DNA of 64,000 nucleotides from Streptococcus intermedius SK54 = ATCC 27335 (lineage in GTDB: Bacteria; Bacillota; Bacilli; Lactobacillales; Streptococcaceae), in contig NZ_ATFK01000007.1 in the NCBI RefSeq assembly GCF_000413475.1, forward strand, positions 1-64,000. The letters are read 5' to 3'. Position 1 is the first letter of the stretch, and each line of letters begins with the position of its first letter. Below the pieces are notes generated by a model. That model had not been told where the DNA came from. It saw only the letters and a program-made list of their open reading frames with translations, and ran no database searches. Shown piece by piece: positions 7,938 through 18,765 of this stretch. A program made the translations under genes and the position numbers.

Positions 7938-9029
7938 TCAATCTACCATAATCGGGATTCTTCCAAAATTCTGTTCCTCTAGCTTTACATTTCCTAGTTG
8001 GTAAATACGATCAGCTTGCTGTGTTAAGAAATCCCATGGTTCTTGACCAATGCGGCTGATGACTTCGATTTTCTTTTTCATCTTTTTAAGATGTTCTTGA
8101 CCTGCTTGAGTAAAACCTAATACGTGAATCCCACTAGGCAAAAACTCATCTCTTGCACCAACCAAAATATAGGTCAAAATCCGTCTGATTCGTGCTTTCG
8201 TATATCGCTTGGTAGTCACTTGTTCGACCAACTCTTCTGTGGTATAACTGGTTTTTGCTGCTTCCCGCAAGCGCACTGCAAGTTCCTGATTAACCTGATA
8301 AAAAGTAGTCAGATCAGGATGACTAATCATCTGATAACGCAAAAAAGGATAGAGTGCTGACCAGGTTACTTTAGGAGACCGAATCAGAAGTTCATGATCT
8401 GGGGTAAATTTTGCTAGAAAACCTGAACAATTCATTCGCTTTCTTAGAGCAGTAGCCGAAGCATATTTTTCATTTTCTGCCTGCGAATGGTAGCCTGCTC
8501 CCTGACGTATGATTGGTGTCAATTGAATATTTTTTCCAGCGCAAGCTTTGGCATAAGAAAGCCCTAAAATATGATTTGGTGTATTTCCAGTGAAGGCCAC
8601 ACCGGCAAATTTTTTCCACATTTCCTGCGTTTTCTGTGGATAAGACAAATCTTCTGGCAAACTTTGCAAGTAATTCACCATTTTCTGTTGATTATCCTCA
8701 TAAATCTGTGAAAAGTATTGATAATCCAGATTTTCTTCCGTCCCAAAAGCCAACTTATCCACACCTAGACGCTCTAAAATGTCCACCGCACCTTGTGCAA
8801 AGTAATCCGCTGACTGAACAGCCACCAAAAATGGCAATTCAACCACCAAATCAGCCCCATTTCGCAGAGCCATTTCCGCGCGTGTCCACTTATCCACAAT
8901 CGCAGGCTCACCACGTTGGACAAAATTCCCCGACATGGCAACAATCTTCACACCTTTAGCCTGCTCTAGCAAAGATTTGTGACCATTGTGGAAGGGGTTG
9001 AATTCTGCAATGATACCGGTGATAGTCAT
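7938..9029 (-). CDS. tmcAL: tRNA(Met) cytidine acetate ligase TmcAL (YlbM family)
   Basis: Nucleotidyltransferase-fold enzyme that makes N4-acetylcytidine at the elongator tRNA-Met wobble position using acetate and ATP. The N-terminus [18 protein letters not shown] holds the HxGH-type motif. [13 protein letters not shown] near residue 320 is also typical. I place the start at the ATG at 9029 because GAAGGAG lies 6 to 8 bases before it; a longer frame to 9050 lacks a ribosome-binding site. The hsdR stop is only 23 bases upstream, so the defence island now sits immediately in front of this housekeeping gene. Confidence 0.9.
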
Positions 9030-9052
9030 GGAGTGCTCCTTCATATACAAAA

Positions 9053-12019
9053 CTATTGATCTTTTAAACTGTTGTAGACATCATCAATAAACATCTGAGC
9101 AATGCGCTTTTTAAATTGTTCATTGTTGAGGAGAACACCGAAGAAATCTTGATTCTGCATATATCCTTCTGTTAAGGCTTGGTCAATCTCATCTTCAAAC
9201 GAAAAGGCAAAATCTTCCCTGGAATTAACACGCGCTGATTGCTGCAACTTCTCATTCTTCTTCATCAGCTCACGAATGGAAACTGCTCCACTGATGCCAA
9301 CTTGTGGGTCAATATCTAAATCCAATTGTTCATTGATTTCCTTGATAATCTCAGATAGTCTTTTTTCTTGCTCATCTGTGACAGAATTCAGGCTTGGTTT
9401 TCCTAAGGTTACTTGATAGTCACCTTCCAGATCAGACACCGTATAAACACCTGTCTGTTTATGTTTCATATAGTCTACAACAATCTTATCTGCAATGGTA
9501 AAATCATTTCCGCCCAAACGAACATCAATCATCTTGACTAAGCTCTGAAGAAAATTATATCGCTCATGCAAAATTTCATTTTGGTAAGCTGTCGCTTGAA
9601 TTAAAAAGGTATACATACGTAAGAAACCACGAATAACCTTCTTGATATTCAACTGTTCTTTCTCATCATACTTTTTCACACGATCATAACTGACATTCAA
9701 CAAAGCAACCATTTTCTGTTTTTCTCGACTAGAACGCTTTTCTTGATAGAGAAATTGATTATATTCATGAACAATATCATAGTCCAGAATCCCATATTCC
9801 TCAATCTTTTGGTCTAATTCAAAAACATCGCTTGGTGTAATGGTTTCAGCTAAGATTGTTTCACGATAGTAAGGTGCAAATCCTTTATTAATATCCTCGT
9901 ATGTATTTTTAAAATCCAGAATAAAAGTTTTCTTATTGTAACCTTTCACAATACGGTTCAATCGCGACAAAGTCTGTACAGCAGCCACATCACGCAGCTT
10001 CTTATCCACATACATGGCCACTAGTTTCGGTTGGTCAAAGCCAGTTTGATATTTATTAGCTACAATCAGCACCTGATAAAGATCCGTATTAAAACGATCT
10101 TTCAGTTTCTCCTCACCAAAGCCATTCATAGCAGACTCTGCATATTCATGACCATCAAGATGAACTTTGCCTGAAAAAGCAATCAGAGTTTTAATCGTTG
10201 TCATGTGGTGTTCTGTCAGGTATTTTTGGAAAGCTAGTTGATACTTAACGGCTGCTTCACGTCCTGATGTCACAATCATAGCCTTACCATTGCCGCCTAA
10301 TTCAGCCATAATATCATGCGTAATAAAATGATCCATGATAATCTCTACTTTCTGATTAATATTCTCATCAGAAAGTTCGATAAATTTAGCAATCTTCCGT
10401 TTGGCAACTGTTGTTTTTAATTCAGGATCCTCTTCGACAGCCTTATTGAGCTTATAATAGGTCTTATAAGTCGTGTAATTATTTAGAACATCCAGTATAA
10501 AACCTTCCTCAATCGCTTGTTTCATACTATAAACATCAAAGGGCGCTTTCGTTCCATCAGCATGCGTTTGCCCAAACAACTGTAGGGTGGTCGCCTTTGG
10601 AGTCGCTGTAAAGGCAATAATGGAAATATTATCCTGCTTACCAGTCCGAGCAATTTCCCCTTCTATCACATCCCCAACTGATACTTCTTGGACTTCATCA
10701 ATGGTTCCATTCTCTTGATTAGTCTCTGTCAAGACATGGCTGACCGCAGACATATAAGTCCCTGTTGTTGAACTATGGGCCTCATCAATCAAAATCGCAA
10801 ACTTCTTACCAGCTGTATTTCCAGCAGTCATCCAATTGGATTTATTGATTTGAGCAAACTTATGGATGGTTGTCGCAATGATTTTGGTATTGCCTGCCAG
10901 AGCATCTGCCAGATCACTGGATTTTGCTTTATCATCCATGACCTTGATGACCCCAGGCTGGTGCTGAATGGCCTGTACAGCACTTTGCAACTGACGGTCA
11001 ACGACAATCCTGTCCGTTACGATTAAAACTGTATCCACAACATTCTTATCTTGATCATCATGAAGATTGACCAAACTGTGGGCCAGCCAGGCAATGGTAT
11101 TGGTCTTTCCAGAACCAGCTGAGTGCTGAATCAGATAATTGCTCTCTGTGTGATTGACACGCATATCATCTAAAACACGATTAACCGCACGGCGCTGCTG
11201 ATAACGTGGAAAAATAAGATCTTTCTTACTACGATTTTCTTTATAGACCTTTAAGAAAATAAATCGTTCGATGAGCTGAAGGATACTGTCCTTAGTTAAG
11301 ACTTCCTTCCAAAAATAGGCCGTATCCGGTCCATCAGGATTGTGGGGATTTCCAGCACCTGTATCAATCCCTTCTCCTTTTCCTTTATTAAAGGGCAGAA
11401 AATAAGTGCTTTGTCCTTTGATCTCTGTGGTCATATAAACTTCCAGCGTGTCAAGGACAAATGCTGCCAGAACGCCTGTATTGAAACGGAAAAGACGATT
11501 TTTAGCATTGCGTTTTTTCAGCTGTTTCATCCCATCCTGAACCGACTGCCCGTTAGGATTGAATTTGAGCTCAATGACAAATAAAGCCAGACCATTCAAA
11601 AAGATAACCAAATCAATACGATCGTCCTCTTGATAGTTCACTTCTTCCATGACTGTCAGACGGTTTTTCTCATAGTTCTGATTCGCCTTGCTGTTGAAAG
11701 AAGTTGCAGGCTTACGATACATGAGATGCAGCTCTTTATTTTCAATGTAAACGCCCGATTTTAAGGAAAAAAGAAAACCGCCCTTTGTAATTTCTTGATT
11801 AATCAGGTTGATAATGGTTGCTTGATCCAATTTTTTCAAGAGATATTCCATGGTATCTTCCTGAGTTGCCATCAAGAAATCCCAGAGCATCTCCGTATCC
11901 ATGGCTAAGCGCTGGTCATAAGCAGCATGAGAACACTCTACAAAGCCATTCTCACCGACCAAGTCATCTATAATCCAACGCTGAAAATCATACCGTTCTT
12001 TGAGATTTAATTCCGCCAT
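9053..12019 (-). CDS. hsdR: Type I restriction enzyme R subunit HsdR
   Basis: Motor and nuclease subunit of the type I restriction-modification complex, about 988 residues. The N-terminal PD-(D/E)xK nuclease shows [19 protein letters not shown]. Superfamily 2 translocase motifs follow: HSAGSGKT (Walker A), ILIDEAHSS (DEAH), AFTATPK and SRLNRIVKG (motif VI). The C-terminal helical region contacts HsdM. Start chosen at the ATG at 12019 with AGGACAAGG upstream; the frame extends to a TTG at 12043 overlapping the Fic stop. It follows the Fic gene by 13 bases and they probably share the promoter at 12973. It is separated from hsdM-hsdS by three accessory genes. Confidence 0.95.
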
Positions 12020-12032
12020 TCCTTGTCCTTTC

Positions 12033-12932
12033 CTAATCTTCAAGAGATAGGATAGCTAAGTACATATCCAATCTCTCATTGACATATTGCGCAAAAAGAT
12101 TTTCCATCGCAGCCAAACTCCCCTTGGCATGGTAGTCATCAAAAGCCTGATAATAAGCCAGCCTATCCGTGAATTTGATATCAATCGGAGGAAAGCCAGC
12201 CTTCATGAGTTCAAGATTGACCAAGAGTCTCCCTGTACGACCATTGCCATCAATAAAGGGATGGATACTCTCAAAGTCAATATGAAAGCGAGCCAGCTTG
12301 GTCACCATGTGCTCACTACTAGACGCATAATCAGCCAATAACTGCTCCATCATAGGGCGAATCCGATAAGGCTGGGATGGTTCATTCACTGCTCCCATGA
12401 TACGCACAGGTACTTTCCGATAGACCCCACGGTCATCTTTTTTATCCGATAAGACCAGATAATGAATGTCCTTGATGACCTGCTCCGTCAAGGGATGATC
12501 TTCCGATACCAAGACCTGGACATATTGGAAAGCCTCACGATGACCAATGGCTTCCATATGATCCTTGAGCGGTTTCTGGTCGATGGTCAAACCACGCAAG
12601 ACCATGTCCGTCTCTCTCAGCGTCAAGGTGTTCCCCTCGATAGCATTTGAATTATAAGTATACTCTACCGTAAACTCCTCATTCAGCCGTTCTAGCTCCC
12701 CAGAAGTTAAAGGGCGTAAAGTAGCCAGCTTGGCCAACTTTTCATCAATCAGGGGCAAGAGGCTAACCGCTCTTTTAAGACGACCATCTGATGGTTTCTT
12801 GGCATCCGCAGGAATCTTCCATAAACGTCCTTGACGGACAGCGCCCGCAATCTTGCCCTGCTGACAGAGATCCCTCACACGACGATCTGAGATTCCCCAC
12901 AGCTGAGCAGCTTGCTTGACAGACATATACAT
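12033..12932 (-). CDS. HTH-Fic family protein (class II-like, self-inhibited AMP transferase)
   Basis: Fic-domain protein, about 299 residues. Residues about 1-45 form a MerR/excisionase-type helix-turn-helix (SVKQAAQLWGISDRRVRDLC). An inhibitory helix motif SNAIEGN (about 115, the S/T-x-x-x-E-G/N class II signature) precedes the complete catalytic motif HPFIDGNGRTGR (about 220). Such enzymes transfer AMP to proteins; the target is unknown. The start is the ATG at 12932, 12 bases after AAAGGAGG; a TTG abutting that site (12944) is unlikely. It lies directly upstream of hsdR, a common association. The DNA-binding head and the repeats at 12987-13038 suggest autoregulation. Confidence 0.9.
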   Translation of the reverse strand: MYMSVKQAAQLWGISDRRVRDLCQQGKIAGAVRQGRLWKIPADAKKPSDGRLKRAVSLLPLIDEKLAKLATLRPLTSGELERLNEEFTVEYTYNSNAIEGNTLTLRETDMVLRGLTIDQKPLKDHMEAIGHREAFQYVQVLVSEDHPLTEQVIKDIHYLVLSDKKDDRGVYRKVPVRIMGAVNEPSQPYRIRPMMEQLLADYASSSEHMVTKLARFHIDFESIHPFIDGNGRTGRLLVNLELMKAGFPPIDIKFTDRLAYYQAFDDYHAKGSLAAMENLFAQYVNERLDMYLAILSLED

Positions 12933-12972
12933 AAAGATACTCAACCTCCTTTGTCATACAAATCTTACTAAC

Positions 12973-13038
12973 ATTATAGCATAGTTCGGAAGGATAGGGG
13001 AGTTTGCGGAAGGATATTTGGAGATTCGCGGAAAGATA
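12973..13038 (-). promoter_or_regulatory. fic-hsdR promoter (extended -10) with three helically phased repeats
   Basis: On the minus strand TGCTATAAT (core 12973-12978) is a perfect extended -10 with no good -35. Three copies of CGGAAGGATA (plus-strand view, the third with one change) start at 12987, 13007 and 13029, spacings of 20 and 22 bases or about two helical turns. They cover the region from just upstream of the -10 outward, an ideal place for a DNA-binding regulator such as the Fic protein's own HTH. Confidence 0.7.
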
Positions 13039-13074
13039 GTTTTAAATGCCAAGTTCAATATTTACAATTTCAAA

Positions 13075-13632
13075 TTATTCATCAATATCAAGTTTAAACT
13101 CATTATTCAAGGACTTCAAATATACATTTTCTCCTTTTTTTACATTTAGATTCTTATGACTAATAATAAACTTCTCCACTAAAATCTTATCTTCATTTTC
13201 TAATTCACAAGTAAAAATTCGATAATTTAAAATTTCTAAAACAATGTTTACACTAAAATAGTTGTGTTTAATACATAAATATCCTAGCGTGGTAAAGAAA
13301 ACTAGAAATAGAACCATACTATCCCATTTTGTGAAGTCAAAAGCAAATAAGGGGAGAATATAGGATAAAAGGTATTCAGAGGTAATAGATTTTTCTTCTT
13401 GTATATTTTTCAAGACAAAAATACTTGTTCCTTCCTTCTCATCTGAAGAGAACCTAAGCAATACTGCTATCAAAGAAACTATCCACAAGAAAACAATAAC
13501 AAAAATACTATATTTCTCCGTGCCTAGAGACTGAGAGCACTCTATACAACTTTTTATATCAATAAATAAAATAGATATCCAAAGGGGTGTAAATGAAGTA
13601 TAGTATAGACTAAAAAACAAAAATTTCGACAT
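13075..13632 (-). CDS. Small four-helix membrane protein, KwaA-like
   Basis: 185-residue membrane protein. Hydrophobic segments lie at about residues 5-25, 43-61, 86-100 and 105-123. SEYLLSYILPLFAFDF and a following GYLCIKHNYFSVN-type loop come before a soluble, charged C-terminal tail of about 60 residues. This architecture and the motif around the third segment resemble KwaA of the Kiwa anti-phage system, and the neighbour upstream resembles KwaB. Identity is inferred from architecture and context, not from alignment. It follows the DUF4868-like gene by 15 bases, with a weak ribosome-binding site. Base composition is visibly more AT-rich than hsdM or hsdR, suggesting separate acquisition. 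Confidence 0.55.
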   Translation of the reverse strand: MSKFLFFSLYYTSFTPLWISILFIDIKSCIECSQSLGTEKYSIFVIVFLWIVSLIAVLLRFSSDEKEGTSIFVLKNIQEEKSITSEYLLSYILPLFAFDFTKWDSMVLFLVFFTTLGYLCIKHNYFSVNIVLEILNYRIFTCELENEDKILVEKFIISHKNLNVKKGENVYLKSLNNEFKLDIDE

Positions 13633-13647
13633 ATTCTTTAAATCTTA

Positions 13648-14589
13648 TTAAATCCACTTTCTTGAACCAGAAACTTCCATTGGAATATCATCAAACGGAT
13701 CAAGCATACCTTTCTGACAAAGCAGTTTTACAATTTTATCTGCAACTCCATCTTGAGTGGAATCAAATTTGTCATTCTTTAATGGAATATTGAATTTTTT
13801 TGCAATCTTCTTTCGAGACTTTTTATCCGCCAATTTTTCAAGATGATCATCATTGAACGAAACAAACTTCCTTGGATTATGGCCACTACTTGCAGACTCC
13901 TTAAAAGAATCAAATCCTTCAATAATAGATTTTACTTCAATTAACTGAATTTTGCTATCACAGATTGAGTGATAAGCTCTTTCCATATTAAAAAGTTTTT
14001 CTCCAGATAAATTCAACAGATATACGATATCATTAACGATTACCAAATCTATAGAATTTCTCAATGTTAAAACTTTATTGGAAATCTCTTTAAAAGTTCC
14101 ATTAGACTGCAAAAATTTATTTTTCAAAGTGGTAATGGGATTTTGCATTGAAACAAACTTTACAGAAATTGTATCATCATCAATTAGCAAATCTCCTTTT
14201 ATTACAGAGGCTTGGTATTTTAATTCTAGCGGTTGGATTTCTGTATCAGGATTAGCTATTGCTTGGAGTAACAGTCCATACTCGTTTGTTATCAGTTCAC
14301 TTGACTTACTCAATTTATAAATAACTTTAACATCTGCTGAACCATCGTACTCACGACAATCAGTATATTGTTTTAGCTCTCCTTGTTTGCCCGACTGATT
14401 ATCAGATAAATATTTTTTTGCCAACTCCTCTACATGCTCTTTTAATCGACCTTTAGGTGATATTTCCACCTCTCTTGTTGAATAACTCGAGCCATTTCTT
14501 TTTGAATGAGTAACTTTAATAATCTGCAATGACCATGCATCACACGTTGATACATTTTTTAAAATAGTTTCTAGGTACTGAATAGTCAC
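13648..14589 (-). CDS. DUF4868 / KwaB-like protein in the type I RM operon
   Basis: 313-residue soluble protein. The C-terminal half (about 165-313) has the pattern I associate with DUF4868/KwaB: a strand pair around DLVIVNDIVYLLNL, then GEKLFNMERAYHS, a helix ending RKKIAKKFNIPL, and a terminal VSGSRKW. In Kiwa systems KwaB is the DNA-interacting partner of membrane protein KwaA. Here the order is kwaB-like then kwaA-like, reversed from the usual one. Start is GTG at 14589; its GGAGG lies inside the last hsdS codons, so translation is coupled to hsdS. Alternatively these could be an unrelated accessory pair. Confidence 0.55.
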   Translation of the reverse strand: MTIQYLETILKNVSTCDAWSLQIIKVTHSKRNGSSYSTREVEISPKGRLKEHVEELAKKYLSDNQSGKQGELKQYTDCREYDGSADVKVIYKLSKSSELITNEYGLLLQAIANPDTEIQPLELKYQASVIKGDLLIDDDTISVKFVSMQNPITTLKNKFLQSNGTFKEISNKVLTLRNSIDLVIVNDIVYLLNLSGEKLFNMERAYHSICDSKIQLIEVKSIIEGFDSFKESASSGHNPRKFVSFNDDHLEKLADKKSRKKIAKKFNIPLKNDKFDSTQDGVADKIVKLLCQKGMLDPFDDIPMEVSGSRKWI

Positions 14590-14595
14590 AATAAT

Positions 14596-15840
14596 CTACA
14601 CCCTCCGTTTTCCTGTCACGTAATCATAAATCAGCGTTTGTCTTTGCTGATTGATATTTTCAATCTGTTTTTGCTTAATGTCAATCATTTGGTTGATTTG
14701 ACTAATTTTTTGGTCGAGGAAATCAGCGATTTTTAGTTGTTCCTCCACATTTGGCAACACTATCTGCAGTTCAGATAAATCACTAAAACTTCCTCCTTGT
14801 CGAACTCCACCACCAAAACTATAAAATACCTTGCATATATCATAAGCATGGAACAAATAGTGATAGTACTTAGAATTCGTTTGTTTATTTATAGCTCTTA
14901 TAGTGACATAAGCTGAGGTTATAAGACCTCGTTCTAAAGAAAGTCCCGTTCGTAAGCTTTTCTTATCATTCTGTAAATCAGTTAGCCTAAAGACAATATC
15001 ATTTGCCTCTATTATATTGTAAGTTTCAAAAGATTCAGGAAGTAATCCCATCAGATTAGTATTTGATTTTCTTTTGATACTACCATAACTTAGCGAAAGT
15101 AAGTTATCTTCTCGATTTCCAATGTTTTTATTTTTCACTTCTATAAAATAATTTGAAACCTTTGTCACCCCCCACCCCTCTGGCACTTGTCCTATCCAGT
15201 CCACGCCAGAGTCTTTCATCGGGGCGGTTTTATCCAGACCTTTTGTAACGGTTTCATAGATGAGGCTTTGGCGGTAGGCTGCCAACTTCTGGATTTGCTC
15301 CTCTAGCAAGGACTTAGCCTTGTCCAATTGAGTAACCTTTTTGTCGAGAAAATCAGCGATTTTATTTTGTTCTTCGTCAGAAGATGGAAATGGAACTACA
15401 ATATTTCTAATATAATCCCAACTAGCTCTAGGCATCTTACTTCCGTAGGTTGATGAATCCACATCATTTATAAAACTATCACTCTGGATCATCCAATATA
15501 AAAATTTTTTATTTAGAGCACTTTCCTTAAAAACAAGGAATTCTGAACTTGCTGTCCCAGAAAAAGTGGCTAGCCAATACTTACGTAAATATGGTCTAAG
15601 TTTTCCAAATAAGATATCTCCTTTATTAAAAGAAATATTCTCTGCATTGTCAACTTGGATTTCAGTAGGAATATATTCTCCTATATTCGATATTATATTC
15701 TCCATCCCAACATATACGTTAGAATCCGTTGTTTTTGCCTTCTCACTTCTAAGATTAACTAAATATCTGAGCTTCATTTCTTGCCAATCATTGGGAATAG
15801 TTTTCATCCACAAATTAGCACTCTCCTTCATCCTAGTCAT
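14596..15840 (-). CDS. hsdS: Type I restriction-modification specificity subunit HsdS
   Basis: 414-residue target-recognition subunit. Two variable target recognition domains (about 15-165 and 220-370) are each followed by a conserved coiled-coil spacer containing IADFLDxK (about 155-205 and 370-412). The half-repeat is also visible in DNA at about 14714-14749 and 15341-15376. The start ATG overlaps the hsdM stop by 8 bases. A single intact copy is present with no second hsdS or recombinase nearby, so I see no phase-variable shuffling system here. Confidence 0.93.
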   Translation of the reverse strand: MTRMKESANLWMKTIPNDWQEMKLRYLVNLRSEKAKTTDSNVYVGMENIISNIGEYIPTEIQVDNAENISFNKGDILFGKLRPYLRKYWLATFSGTASSEFLVFKESALNKKFLYWMIQSDSFINDVDSSTYGSKMPRASWDYIRNIVVPFPSSDEEQNKIADFLDKKVTQLDKAKSLLEEQIQKLAAYRQSLIYETVTKGLDKTAPMKDSGVDWIGQVPEGWGVTKVSNYFIEVKNKNIGNREDNLLSLSYGSIKRKSNTNLMGLLPESFETYNIIEANDIVFRLTDLQNDKKSLRTGLSLERGLITSAYVTIRAINKQTNSKYYHYLFHAYDICKVFYSFGGGVRQGGSFSDLSELQIVLPNVEEQLKIADFLDQKISQINQMIDIKQKQIENINQQRQTLIYDYVTGKRRV

Positions 15841-17938
15841 GCTTCAAGTCCTCCAAGAGTTGCTGCAACTGTTCTTCTAGGTCGTAAAAGTCCTTGAGCA
15901 GGTTTTCTGCTTTTTCAGGTGCTTGATACTTGTAGAAATAGCGGGTAAAGGGGATTTCTGCACCGAGTTTGGTGTCATCCCACCAGTAGTGAGCATCTGG
16001 CACGTGGGGATAGACTTCACGCTCAAAGTAGGTACTTTCATCCTCAGAGAGCTTGACGATTTCAGAGTCCTTGGTCGTCTTATCATAGATGATACCATCT
16101 GCTACTTCGCCAAACTTATCCTTTTTCTTGGTGGTAATCACTTCTGCCGTTTTGTCCATTTGACTCATGGCCAGGGCTAGGGCATTGAGGTTAGCAGATG
16201 TCAGCTTGATATCGGCTAAAAGATCCTTGAGTTTTTGTGAAAAATCTTCAAAGTTTGGATAGGTCGCATCTGTTAGCCCGACTCGTAAGGCTGCCATGAT
16301 TTGCTCTTGCTGGTCTTTCCCCGCCAACATCTTTTGCAAATCCTTATCCTGCTTAGCTGTACGTGGTTCTGTCTCTAGCAATTCTTGATATTTATATTCA
16401 TCGTAAAGCTTAGTGAAAAAGGGAACAGATTTGATAGCTTCCAAAGTTTCTTCCGTAATGGCACCACGACGCTGCAGGGGCTGCATGACTAAAAATTCCT
16501 TGTAAAGAAATTCTTGATTGTCAAAGATTTTAACCTGTTCATTTTCCTTAAAATCATGATACCACTTCACAATCTGACGAATATTATCTGGTGAGAGTTC
16601 CCGACGTTTTTGCCCTAGTGACTTACGTAAGGGGACAAATTCCCCTGTCGCATCAATAAACTGAACCTTGTTTTGTCGCTCCGGTTTCTTATCCTTGTTG
16701 TAGATCCAGATATAAATCCCAATCCCCGTATTATAGAAAAATTGCCCAGGAAGAGCGATGATTGCTTCCAAGAGGTCGTTTTCTAGGATGTAGCGTCTGA
16801 TCTGACTTTCACCCGATGTCGTCCCACCTGAAAAGAGAGGTGAGCCATTAGAAATAATCGCAGCTCTGCCATTTTCCTCCATCTTGGCTAAAGCATGCAA
16901 GTGGAATAAAAGCTGGGCATCGCCAGTCGTTGGGGTGGCCACGAAACGTCCCTCACGGCCTTCCGTCTTTTCAAAGAGTTCTTGGTCTTTTTTGACAGCT
17001 GCTTCGACCCCATCATCCGCATCTTTTCCTCCCCACGATTGCCCAAAGGGTGGATTCGCAATGACAAAATTCATCTTGACATCAGGAAATGAATCAGGAT
17101 CTTTCAATGTGTCCGCTTTGACAAAATAATCTGATTCTTCTTGTCGAAATAGCATATCTGCCTTCCCTATACCATAGGTTTCAGAAAGATATTCTTGACC
17201 AAAGAGTCGTACACTGACATCATGATTGAGCTGCTTGATATAGCTTTGTGCAGTCGCAAGCATACCACCTGTACCAGCAGCCATATCCAAAATCTTGATT
17301 TCTTTTCCTGCTTTGAAAAGAGACTCATCAGCTTCCATTAAGAGCAGGTTCACCATAAGCCCGATGACTTCACGCGGTGTGTAGTGGGAACCAGCCTCCT
17401 CGTTTTCAGAAAAGCGACGGATAATGTCTTCAAACATATAGCCCATCCGCATAGAATCAACTGTACTTGTAGACAAATCAATTTCAGAGAATTTTTTCAC
17501 TACAGTGAAAAGACGACCCGTTTTGGCTAAAGTCTCAACTTCGTCCTTGAATTTCAGATTTTCAATGATATCTTTCACTCGCTGCGAATAACCATCTAAG
17601 TAATCTAAGAAGTTTTCCTTAATCCCGTCGGGATCGTTGAGCAGATTCTTCAGAGTAAATTGACTAAGATTGTAGTATTTATAGCCAGTGATTGATTCAT
17701 AAATTCGCTCAGGTGTTTTAGGGTTAGCTTTATATTGTTCCAAAACTTTTTCTTTGGTCGGAAGAAGAGCCGCCTCTAAACGAGCCAAAACAAACATAGG
17801 GATGATGACATCACGGTATTTATCAGCCCGATAGGCACCACGAAGAGTATTGGCAATAGACCAGACTAAATTGACATCTTTACTAATATTGACACTATTT
17901 CCCTGAAAGAGCGGTAATTTATTTTTAAAGTTTGACAT
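15833..17938 (-). CDS. hsdM: Type I restriction-modification methyltransferase subunit HsdM
   Basis: N6-adenine methyltransferase, 701 residues. It has an N-terminal helical HsdM_N domain (about 20-170) and an AdoMet motif DMAAGTGGM (about 220). The catalytic motif NPPFGQSWG is at about 297. A long C-terminal extension (about 500-701) ends in a coiled-coil stretch rich in Glu and Leu that would contact HsdS. Longer than the classic E. coli M subunit but usual for this Firmicute subfamily. It is the first gene of the island, preceded by an AT-rich promoter-like region and a hairpin at 17982-18004. Confidence 0.94.
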   Translation of the reverse strand: MSNFKNKLPLFQGNSVNISKDVNLVWSIANTLRGAYRADKYRDVIIPMFVLARLEAALLPTKEKVLEQYKANPKTPERIYESITGYKYYNLSQFTLKNLLNDPDGIKENFLDYLDGYSQRVKDIIENLKFKDEVETLAKTGRLFTVVKKFSEIDLSTSTVDSMRMGYMFEDIIRRFSENEEAGSHYTPREVIGLMVNLLLMEADESLFKAGKEIKILDMAAGTGGMLATAQSYIKQLNHDVSVRLFGQEYLSETYGIGKADMLFRQEESDYFVKADTLKDPDSFPDVKMNFVIANPPFGQSWGGKDADDGVEAAVKKDQELFEKTEGREGRFVATPTTGDAQLLFHLHALAKMEENGRAAIISNGSPLFSGGTTSGESQIRRYILENDLLEAIIALPGQFFYNTGIGIYIWIYNKDKKPERQNKVQFIDATGEFVPLRKSLGQKRRELSPDNIRQIVKWYHDFKENEQVKIFDNQEFLYKEFLVMQPLQRRGAITEETLEAIKSVPFFTKLYDEYKYQELLETEPRTAKQDKDLQKMLAGKDQQEQIMAALRVGLTDATYPNFEDFSQKLKDLLADIKLTSANLNALALAMSQMDKTAEVITTKKKDKFGEVADGIIYDKTTKDSEIVKLSEDESTYFEREVYPHVPDAHYWWDDTKLGAEIPFTRYFYKYQAPEKAENLLKDFYDLEEQLQQLLEDLKHD

Positions 17939-17981
17939 TTTTTACTTTCTATTCTCAGATTCTATTATATTATATCATAAT

Positions 17982-18004
17982 AGCCTATCATTATTTGATA
18001 GGCT
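17982..18004. terminator. 9-bp hairpin between the methyltransferase gene and hsdM
   Basis: AGCCTATCA (17982-17990) pairs with TGATAGGCT (17996-18004) across a 5-base loop. On the minus strand the following bases are AU-rich rather than a pure U-run. It marks the right edge of the defence island, ending the housekeeping transcript that stops at 18031. Confidence 0.5.
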
Positions 18005-18030
18005 TCTGTATATTTGTTAATAAAATTCCC

Positions 18031-18765
18031 CTACTTCAGGCACACAAAGAACCAACGTTTTGATTTTTTGCGTGGCTTTTTATCTTCAAAATCTGCATAG
18101 ACCTTAACAGTTTTAAATCCAGCTCGTTCTAGTAAAATATCATAGGTTAGAATTTCATAAGTGCGTTCTTCGTGGACTTCGTCGTAACGTGTGAAGCGTC
18201 CGTCTTCGTCTTGCAAGAAGAAGGTCAATTCATGCACGACTGAATGTGGGGCTTCATCGGCGTATGTATCCCAAACCATGGCAAATTCATCAGCGTTTTC
18301 ATGGTAAGAATAACCAGGAAAGACGGTATCTGTCTGGTAAGTTGAGTGCACATCAAAAATGAAAACGCCGCCTTCGTTCAAGCAGTGGTAAACTTGCTGA
18401 AAGACATCACCGACTTCAACTTCATCGACCATGTAGCAAATTGAATCAGAGTAACAAGTCACCAAGTCGTATTTACCAACCTGCGACAAATCAAGCATGT
18501 TTCCCTGTCTGAATTCAATAGCTTCACCTGCTTCTTTGGCATGTTTACGAGCGATTTCAAGCATCTCATCACTCAAATCCAATCCCGTCACATCAAAGCC
18601 AACTTTGGCAAAGCGTACGGATTGAATTCCTGTTCCACAAGCTAATTCTAAGAGCTTTTTCTTATTTTTTGGAAAATGGCGGAGCGAAAAATCGGTCCAT
18701 TTATCATAAAGACTATCATCCATAATAGCATCATAGACTGATGCGAAGGTTTCATAAGTTGTCAT
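18031..18765 (-). CDS. Class I SAM-dependent methyltransferase
   Basis: About 244-residue Rossmann-fold methyltransferase. The AdoMet motif LELACGTGIQS is near residue 42, followed by GLDLSDEML and a VTCYSDSICYM segment. It sits just after rsfS in a conserved streptococcal order; the substrate is unknown. The start is taken at the ATG at 18765 (MTTYETFASVYD). A frame to TTG at 18783 exists. A 6-bp hairpin (18776-18792) overlaps the upstream ribosome-binding region and could modulate translation. tmcAL, usually the next gene, is displaced by the RM island. Confidence 0.85.
   Translation of the reverse strand: MTTYETFASVYDAIMDDSLYDKWTDFSLRHFPKNKKKLLELACGTGIQSVRFAKVGFDVTGLDLSDEMLEIARKHAKEAGEAIEFRQGNMLDLSQVGKYDLVTCYSDSICYMVDEVEVGDVFQQVYHCLNEGGVFIFDVHSTYQTDTVFPGYSYHENADEFAMVWDTYADEAPHSVVHELTFFLQDEDGRFTRYDEVHEERTYEILTYDILLERAGFKTVKVYADFEDKKPRKKSKRWFFVCLK

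What the first reader, a model, noticed from the sequence alone, without database searches (positions are those of the whole stretch)
13075..14589. Kiwa-like pair embedded in a type I restriction-modification operon
Between hsdS and fic-hsdR lie a DUF4868/KwaB-like protein and a four-helix membrane protein with KwaA-like architecture. Their order is reversed relative to usual Kiwa, and the first is translationally coupled to hsdS (ribosome-binding site inside the last hsdS codons). This would physically and transcriptionally link a membrane-associated anti-phage sensor with the methylation/specificity subunits. Seen: frames, hydrophobic segments, overlap and motifs. Known: KwaA is a membrane protein and KwaB carries DUF4868. 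Inference: that these two are homologues and act as one system with HsdMS.
Basis: partly seen in the sequence, partly recalled or inferred. Interest (0 to 1): 0.82.

Follow-up and report, generated by a model that had tools for sequence, protein, structure and literature searches.

The report
Kiwa defence cassette inside restriction operon
A two-gene anti-phage system called Kiwa sits as one of several exchangeable defence cassettes at a fixed spot inside a restriction-modification operon of streptococci, so two known kinds of defence are packed together and probably made together.

Summary
14589-13648 (-) encodes a KwaB homologue (Pfam KwaB above cut-off; fold), 13632-13075 (-) a KwaA homologue (14 PADLOC KwaA models; NCBIfam KwaA below its cut-off). 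They lie between hsdS and fic-hsdR, kwaB first, with a Shine-Dalgarno core inside the last hsdS codons. The reversed order is not unusual: 9 of 15 other Kiwa loci that I fetched are kwaB-kwaA, as is a published, active S. thermophilus Kiwa (PMC11514479, passages). 'One system with HsdMS' is not supported. All 14 operons found by HsdR at 77% identity or more (window included) carry cargo at this spot; with S. suis 2219, 15: Kiwa 3; a weakly DUF6731-like pair 6; PDC-M67 1; PDC-M39A-type membrane protein plus 349-aa protein 2; SIR2 2; PDC-S42 1. Cargo changes between backbones 93-98% identical in DNA, with borders at the hsdS stop and at the fic operator or hsdR leader. Best reading: a stand-alone Kiwa in an exchangeable accessory slot. 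Side result: the candidate PDC-M39 looks like a diverged Kiwa, firmly for its membrane protein, moderately for its partner.

The parts
15833..17938 (-). hsdM, type I modification subunit (701 aa)
   Evidence: Pfam N6_Mtase 1.5e-59 and HsdM_N 5.8e-21; PADLOC MTase_I 3e-214
14596..15840 (-). hsdS, type I specificity subunit (414 aa); the left border of the cassette slot is at its stop codon
   Evidence: Pfam Methylase_S 1e-17; PADLOC Specificity_I 8.2e-77; border from blastn of sister operons
14602..14606 (-). Shine-Dalgarno core GGAGG inside the last hsdS codons, 12 nt before the kwaB GTG
   Evidence: sequence; an SD core lies in the last 18 nt of hsdS in 13 of 15 operons
13648..14589 (-). kwaB (313 aa, GTG start)
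   Evidence: Pfam PF16162 KwaB 2.7e-9, 37.7 bits over cut-off 26.3; 7 PADLOC KwaB models; Foldseek ranks 1-6 all solved KwaB, E 1.1e-8 to 1.0e-6
13075..13632 (-). kwaA (185 aa, membrane protein)
   Evidence: 14 PADLOC KwaA models, best 2.4e-16; NCBIfam KwaA 3.8e-18 but under its cut-off; family profile to solved KwaA 8.9e-23
12973..13038 (-). putative fic-hsdR promoter: three TATCCTTCCGNNA-like direct repeats (spacing 22 and 20 bp), then TGCTATAAT; right border of the slot in Fic-bearing operons
   Evidence: last repeat with -10 found by pattern in 7 of 7 Fic-bearing and 0 of 8 Fic-less operons
12033..12944 (-). fic: N-terminal HTH_17 plus Fic domain, motif HPFIDGNGRTGR; belongs to the fic-hsdR half, absent in 8 of 15 operons
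   Evidence: Pfam Fic 1.4e-20 and HTH_17 8.9e-9; motif
9053..12043 (-). hsdR, type I restriction subunit (996 aa)
   Evidence: NCBIfam TIGR00348 hsdR 4e-62 (under its cut-off); Pfam SWI2_SNF2 3.1e-21 and HSDR_N 9.3e-13

Best explanation
This is a Kiwa system (kwaB-kwaA) carried as one of several interchangeable defence cassettes in a fixed slot of a streptococcal type I RM operon, between the hsdS stop codon and the fic operator or hsdR leader. It is probably transcribed together with hsdM-hsdS, and kwaB translation is probably coupled to hsdS termination, so the cargo is made with the modification half of the RM system. It then works as Kiwa does elsewhere: KwaA in the membrane reacts to phage attachment or injection, and KwaB binds the incoming DNA and stops its replication and late transcription (mechanism taken from passages of a review, PMC12904381). 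It needs no HsdMS partner. Cassettes are exchanged by recombination in the conserved 3' end of hsdS and in fic/hsdR. Shown here: homology, placement, variation of cargo on closely related backbones, shared borders. Inferred: co-transcription, coupling, anti-phage function, independence of HsdMS, recombination route.
For: KwaB and KwaA homology by Pfam, PADLOC, family profile against PDB, and (KwaB) fold. hsdM-hsdS-kwaB-kwaA-(fic)-hsdR in the 3 of 284 genomes of the genus with a KwaB relative. 14 of 14 operons found by HsdR at 77% identity or more hold cargo; six kinds over 15 operons. The Kiwa label needs 3 changes on both backbone trees, forced by starred branches. Borders: L004/L059 match ends 5 nt before the end of hsdS and resumes at the fic operator; L063/L065 ends 4 nt before and resumes 25 nt ahead of hsdR; L067/L068 ends at the stop and resumes 35 nt ahead of hsdR. 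In 13 of 15 operons the first cargo gene starts -4 to +6 nt from the hsdS stop. Kiwa of S. [quoted passage not shown]
Against: No transcript or phage data. The pair is diverged: NCBIfam's KwaA equivalog cut-off is missed (65.9 against 100 bits), NCBIfam gives nothing for KwaB, single-sequence phmmer finds no solved KwaB and solved KwaA only at E 0.045. The KwaB model is of middling quality and its matches have TM 0.47-0.52 and rmsd 8-10 A; the KwaA model is unusable. The SD core is 12 nt from the kwaB start in the window and lacking in L005. The tree test of all cargo labels is weak with 15 rows. I could not show that S. thermophilus 90730 Kiwa belongs to this subclade: I had no sequence of it, and the host in those tests may have had RM of its own.
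Confidence: 0.75

Rival explanations
1. Guarded cargo, as with PrrC in EcoprrI: the cassette product is held or watched by the HsdRMS complex and fires when a phage inhibits restriction. Kiwa would then be the back-up layer against antirestriction.
For: A module at this address is known: DarTG2 between hsdS and hsdR in EPEC (PMC12255303, passages); PrrC is embedded in the EcoprrI locus and fires when EcoPrrI is inhibited (PMC12707154, passages). Cargo present in 14 of 14 operons.
Against: Cargo of unrelated families sits on closely related HsdM and HsdR, which is hard if each must be held by the same complex. Kiwa relatives stand without RM in the stretch read (L039, L074). No binding data.
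Confidence: 0.12
2. One composite system: HsdMS (specificity, methylation) directs KwaB to unmodified phage DNA.
For: Close spacing of kwaB to hsdS, kept in three species.
Against: HsdS is only 36-37% identical between the three Kiwa operons while KwaB is 61-67% identical to the window's; the three do not group on the backbone trees; the same spacing serves unrelated cargo; a Kiwa gene pair protects without its neighbouring RM genes (PMC11514479, passages).
Confidence: 0.05
3. Passenger or decaying cargo: kwaBA is kept only by hitch-hiking with the RM operon.
For: Rare (3 of 284 genomes). Parts of sister operons are broken: the SIR2 cargo of L066 by an early in-frame stop, hsdS of L068 in two short frames.
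Against: Both window frames are intact and KwaB/KwaA are conserved at 61-69% between species, with long invariant blocks.
Confidence: 0.08

Closest known systems
Kiwa (KwaA-KwaB) of the solved structures 9mrx, 9nyu, 9mtn, 9mrg, 9o0i
   Same: Both proteins homologous and adjacent; KwaB fold recovered
   Different: Order kwaB-kwaA (the usual kwaA-kwaB order is recalled); 13-15% identity in the structural matches; placed inside an RM operon; NCBIfam KwaA cut-off not reached
Kiwa of Streptococcus thermophilus 90730 (PMC11514479, passages)
   Same: Listed as kwaB then kwaA, in a defence island with RM; cloned pair active against phages sk1 and c2
   Different: The passages read do not say that it lies between hsdS and hsdR; sequence not available here
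DarTG2 between hsdS and hsdR of enteropathogenic E. coli (PMC12255303, passages)
   Same: A second defence module at the same address of a type I operon; [quoted passage not shown]
   Different: Toxin-antitoxin cargo, other bacteria, upstream repressor RptR instead of a fic operator
PrrC in EcoprrI (PMC12707154, passages)
   Same: Accessory defence gene embedded in a type I RM locus
   Different: tRNA anticodon nuclease activated when the RM enzyme is inhibited; nothing of the kind is shown for Kiwa
Phage-defence candidates (PDC) found by 'guilt-by-embedding' (Payne et al. 2024 preprint, known here only through citing papers)
   Same: Same idea; PADLOC names three cargo kinds of the slot as PDC (M67, M39A, S42)
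   Different: Here Kiwa itself is in the slot, and cargo varies within one operon family

Membership tests
Kiwa | KwaB (DUF4868/PF16162) protein | tested here: met
   PF16162 37.7 bits over cut-off 26.3; 7 PADLOC models; profile of 19 KwaB to 9mrx_K 9.8e-22; no NCBIfam hit
Kiwa | KwaB fold | tested here: met
   Model mean pLDDT 67.4; Foldseek ranks 1-6 all KwaB, probability 1.00, TM 0.47-0.52, rmsd 8-10 A; rank 7 is E. coli YejK at E 0.23
Kiwa | KwaA membrane protein, by sequence | tested here: met
   14 PADLOC KwaA models, best 2.4e-16; profile of 19 KwaA to 9o0i_G 8.9e-23; but NCBIfam NF041622 65.9 bits under cut-off 100
Kiwa | KwaA fold, transmembrane helices | tested here: inconclusive
   Model pLDDT 45.4, not searched; two strong and several weak hydrophobic segments
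Kiwa | Two adjacent genes on one strand | tested here: met
   15-nt gap, same strand; adjacency kept in L004 and L005. Transcript not measured
Kiwa | Gene order kwaA-kwaB | tested here: not met
   Order is kwaB-kwaA; but 9 of 15 other fetched Kiwa loci share it, so order does not define the family
Kiwa | Phage protection; KwaA tetramer and KwaB dimer lattice | not testable with these tools
   Needs experiment
Composite Kiwa-HsdMS system | Obligatory pairing of KwaBA with this HsdMS | tested here: not met
   Related backbones with five other cargo kinds; Kiwa relatives without RM in the stretch read
Type I RM operon with embedded defence module | Module between hsdS and hsdR on the same strand | tested here: met
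PrrC-type guarded module | Module silent until the RM enzyme is inhibited | not testable with these tools
   Only the embedding is shared

The most novel reading that the evidence does not exclude
The hsdS-to-hsdR slot of this operon family is a dedicated, never-empty second-effector position: the RM complex, or the coupled translation, licenses whatever cassette is there (Kiwa, a Kiwa-like pair, DUF6731-type pairs with a membrane protein, SIR2, PDC-S42), so that inhibition of restriction by a phage unleashes a second defence. Kiwa would then be a plug-in effector of a type I RM guard.
Probability: 0.12. Interest if true: 0.8.

Novelty: new variant of a known kind. Interest (0 to 1): 0.45.

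Why it matters
It gives a clean natural series: type I backbones 93-98% identical in DNA that differ in the cassette at one precise address, with Kiwa as one of the plug-ins. That lets one ask directly whether an RM operon and its embedded defence cooperate or merely travel together, by swapping cassettes in one backbone. It also ties the candidate PDC-M39 to Kiwa and points to an unnamed pair (281-286 aa protein plus small membrane protein), the commonest cargo here, as a next candidate for testing.

Tried and rejected
Kiwa on phages or plasmids: no match for KwaB in 72,556 plasmid or 50,697 phage records; KwaA none in phages and one weak match (28% over 57%) on a Halobacterium plasmid. Viral contigs: KwaB none confirmed; KwaA one locus, L074, with its own diverged KwaB on the opposite strand.

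KwaA structure: model too poor to search. That all membrane-plus-soluble cargo pairs are Kiwa: rejected for the DUF6731 pairs (KwaB against DUF6731 probability 0.0, KwaA against its membrane partner 0.8). The six unnamed pairs are one family (soluble parts 45-100%, membrane parts 36-100% identical); their link to DUF6731/PDC-M67 is weak: L061 2.4e-5 under the Pfam cut-off, L060 no hit; hhalign 2.8 for the soluble part, 90.6 over only 46 columns for the membrane part; no blastp similarity of note to L059.

PDC-M39 and Kiwa: results depend on the rows used. With the two slot sequences alone KwaA gives 49.9 and KwaB 2.8; with relatives added 98.3 and 93.2; with the Enterococcus-order PDC-M39 rows alone 96.5 and 83.5. 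The 349-aa protein of L063/L069 has no PADLOC hit and matches PDC-M39B only at probability 8.2, E 0.0042, so it is not assigned; its membrane neighbour is PDC-M39A (PADLOC 1.5e-20; hhalign 98.5).

Cargo following the backbone: cargo labels are not clustered beyond shuffles (8 changes; shuffled mean 8.4; as low in 103 and 97 of 200). With 15 rows this test is weak; the argument rests on near-identical backbones with different cargo.

The slot as a general property of type I operons: not so. Five more distant operons of the genus (HsdR 37-43%) have either nothing between hsdS and hsdR (L093) or one and the same kind of 380-aa gene (L094-L097).

Literature: the main Kiwa paper (PMC12348683) is not held; Payne et al. 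2024 was seen only as a citation. A search for Kiwa with type I restriction-modification, embedded and Streptococcus found 0 papers; this covers only the held library.

Rows left out: L037 was left out of the KwaB alignment because its KwaB appears to be in two short frames, but is counted in gene order; two PF16162 matches under the cut-off (G736, G864) were not followed. Of the M39A search, L076, L078 and L085-L087 were not used; L081, L082 and L084 are KwaA genes of Kiwa loci already held.

Full report
What is there. On the minus strand the window holds hsdM (17938-15833), hsdS (15840-14596), a 313-aa gene (14589-13648), a 185-aa gene (13632-13075), fic (12944-12033) and hsdR (12043-9053). 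The genus is Streptococcus: genome G057, given as same genus, has the contig length and range of Streptococcus suis 2219, and G213 that of Streptococcus sp. HMSC034E03.

Identity of the two proteins. The 313-aa protein matches Pfam KwaB at 2.7e-9, 37.7 bits over a cut-off of 26.3, and seven PADLOC KwaB models. NCBIfam gives no hit and phmmer against solved structures finds no KwaB. A profile of 19 KwaB proteins finds solved KwaB at 9.8e-22. The predicted model (mean pLDDT 67.4 from a five-sequence alignment) has solved KwaB chains as its six best Foldseek hits, E 1.1e-8 to 1.0e-6, TM 0.47-0.52, rmsd 8-10 A; the seventh is the E. coli nucleoid-associated protein YejK at E 0.23. The 185-aa protein has no Pfam hit, but matches 14 PADLOC KwaA models, best 2.4e-16, NCBIfam KwaA at 3.8e-18 though under that model's cut-off, and solved KwaA by phmmer only at 0.045; a profile of 19 KwaA finds solved KwaA at 8.9e-23. 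Its own structure prediction failed (pLDDT 45.4). So both are Kiwa proteins, of a diverged branch: on the KwaB tree the three streptococcal proteins fall with L073, L074 and L039 (100/99) on a long stem of 1.68; L074 and L039 are themselves flagged as long, so that join is unsure.

Gene order. In the PF16162 surveys 12 of 395 genomes of the order and 8 of 398 of the phylum have a match, 6 of the 8 over the cut-off (the window's genome is in both). I read the order in the 15 loci fetched from these outside the genus (L018-L027, L035-L039): 9 are kwaB-kwaA (L019-L026, L037) and 6 kwaA-kwaB (L018, L027, L035, L036, L038, L039). KwaA of L023, L026, L037 and L038 gave no hit to my three-sequence profile and was confirmed with PADLOC. 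On the KwaB tree the order label is clustered (2 changes, shuffled mean 5.1). The S. thermophilus 90730 Kiwa is listed as (kwaB, kwaA), ORFs 0688 and 0689 at ascending coordinates; the cloned pair gave 5- and 4-log reductions for lactococcal phages sk1 and c2 and about 1 log for streptococcal phages (PMC11514479; passages). The reversal is therefore ordinary.

Neighbourhood in relatives. KwaB relatives occur in 3 of 284 genomes of the genus, the window's included; all three have hsdM-hsdS-kwaB-kwaA-hsdR, with fic before hsdR in two. KwaB of the other two is 61 and 67%, KwaA 64 and 69%, HsdM 77 and 83%, HsdR 78 and 81%, HsdS 36 and 37% identical to the window's. Of the 15 surveyed loci outside the genus, five have type I genes within the fetched stretch (L021, L026, L027, L035, L037); L035 reads hsdM-(HsdS-sized gene)-hsdR-kwaA-kwaB in line, where the middle gene has no hit of its own.

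The slot. I then searched the genus with HsdR instead of Kiwa: 19 of 279 genomes match at E 1e-100 or better, 14 of them at 77% identity or more, the window among them. I read all 14 operons (window; L005; L059-L070) plus L004, which came through KwaB. None of the 14 is empty between hsdS and (fic-)hsdR. Cargo over the 15: kwaB-kwaA in 3 (window, L004, L005); a 281-286 aa protein plus a 142-164 aa membrane protein in 6 (L060, L061, L062, L065, L067, L070); PDC-M67A (8.5e-148; DUF6731 1.9e-9) plus PDC-M67B in L059; PDC-M39A (1.5e-20) plus an unassigned 349-aa protein in L063 and L069; a SIR2_2 protein (1.2e-24) in L064 and, broken by an early stop, in L066; PDC-S42 (1.1e-152) in L068, whose hsdS is in two short frames. 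Family scans were made on L059, L060, L061, L063, L064 and L068 and, with PADLOC only, on L065 (no hit); L062, L065, L067 and L070 are placed by blastp with L060/L061, L066 and L069 by blastn with L064 and L063.

Exchange with sharp borders. L004 (Kiwa), L059 (PDC-M67) and L060 have hsdM and fic-hsdR parts 93-96% identical in DNA; the matches end 5-10 nt before the end of hsdS and resume at the fic operator. L063 (PDC-M39A), L064 (SIR2) and L065, and again L067 and L068 (PDC-S42), are 93-98% identical; matches end 0-7 nt before the end of hsdS and resume 17-35 nt ahead of hsdR. On HsdM and HsdR trees the Kiwa label needs 3 changes, all forced by well-supported branches; all labels together are no more clustered than shuffles. 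HsdS itself also varies in long stretches between otherwise near-identical operons.

Coupling. In 13 of 15 operons the first cargo gene starts between -4 and +6 nt of the hsdS stop (not in the SIR2 operons), and an SD core lies in the last 18 nt of hsdS in 13 of 15 (missing in L005 and L066). In the window the core is 12 nt from the GTG, longer than usual, so re-initiation at the stop is as likely as a strong site; this is inference. The promoter and terminator scan of 8800-18300 gave no clear excess (32 promoter-like against 27.4 +/- 5.6 in shuffles; 4 terminator-like against 6.7).

The fic-hsdR half. Fic-bearing operons (7 of 15) have repeats and an extended -10 just before fic; by pattern the last repeat with the -10 is in 7 of 7 and in 0 of 8 Fic-less ones. 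In the 64-kb window the repeat pattern with one mismatch occurs 5 times against 0.97 expected (0 of 100 shuffles reach 5), three of them here. So restriction is probably under its own control and the cargo belongs to the hsdMS transcript; untested.

PDC-M39 and Kiwa. The PADLOC PDC-M39A profile matches 13 of 246 genomes, among them the KwaA genes of three Kiwa loci held here (G446 3.2e-8, G376 4.1e-6, G419 1.2e-4), and PADLOC also reports it for the KwaA of L038 at 5.6e-5. Profile-profile comparison, E for one comparison: KwaA against M39A 98.3, E 2.4e-14 over 154 columns; KwaB against the partner set 93.2, E 2.9e-7 over 194 columns; reversed profiles 0.5 and 0.1. Without L063, L069 and L083 the figures are 96.5 and 83.5. 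So M39A is a KwaA relative with good support, and M39B a KwaB relative with moderate support; the 349-aa protein of the slot stays unassigned (8.2 to M39B, 2.8 to KwaB). One paper notes that PDC-M39 loci get another name from DefenseFinder, without saying which in the passage seen (PMC11811056), so the link may be known to others.

Known or new. [quoted passage not shown] PrrC is embedded in the EcoprrI locus (PMC12707154, passages). PDC families come from embedding (PMC12988326, PMC10855318, passages). I did not find Kiwa at this address in print; the searches cover only the held library. The finding is a real Kiwa, a new arrangement of known parts, and a well-resolved case of cassette exchange.

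How it likely works. KwaA and KwaB form a membrane-anchored complex; on phage attachment KwaB binds the entering DNA and blocks replication and late transcription (review passage, PMC12904381). The RM operon supplies expression and a place that recombination can refill. Whether HsdRMS also controls the cassette, as with PrrC, is open and is the most interesting alternative.

Changes on checking.

Noticed in passing
window 12973-13038 (-) and the same place in L004, L059-L062, L070: Direct repeats like TATCCTTCCGNNA, 20-22 bp apart, ahead of an extended -10 before fic; the last repeat with the -10 is found by pattern in 7 of 7 Fic-bearing and 0 of 8 Fic-less operons. The HTH-Fic protein may regulate its own fic-hsdR unit.
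   Followed up: partly
L075, L077, L079 and L063 8695-9336, L069 4677-5318: PDC-M39A looks like a diverged KwaA, and PDC-M39B (moderately) like KwaB; a PDC-M39A-type membrane gene sits in the same RM slot in L063 and L069, before an unassigned 349-aa gene.
   Followed up: yes
L060, L061, L062, L065, L067, L070: The commonest cargo is a 281-286 aa protein plus a small, four-segment membrane protein; of those scanned (L060, L061, and the soluble part of L065) none has a PADLOC hit.
   Followed up: partly
L074 6001-7495: In a viral contig kwaA and kwaB are convergent and overlap tail to tail by 14 nt, near a large gene that looks like part of a tape-measure gene (recalled resemblance).
   Followed up: no
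L073 9711-10631: KwaB 51% identical to the window's in a MAG named Ruminobacter, at a contig end, with no hsdS upstream.
   Followed up: no
L004 11105-11720: The kwaA-fic gap of S. suis 2219 holds what looks like a degraded second copy of the fic operator (88% over 34 nt to L059) and a short hydrophobic peptide frame on the minus strand (holin-like by recall): perhaps a scar of an earlier exchange.
   Followed up: partly
L068 between hsdM and the PDC-S42 gene: hsdS is reduced to two short frames while hsdM, the PDC-S42 cargo and hsdR stay open.
   Followed up: no
L094-L097: A more distant type I family of the genus has a 380-aa gene between hsdS and hsdR (weak HEPN_Swt1 match, 0.0012, under cut-off, in L095) and, in L095 and L097, a 241-aa gene between hsdM and hsdS.
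   Followed up: partly
L037 7693-8554: KwaB appears as two short frames (124 and 122 aa) beside an open KwaA.
   Followed up: no
KwaB model m0cf7e742702b: The first Foldseek hit after the KwaB chains is the nucleoid-associated protein YejK (E 0.23, probability 0.18); too weak to use, but a DNA-binding protein.
   Followed up: no
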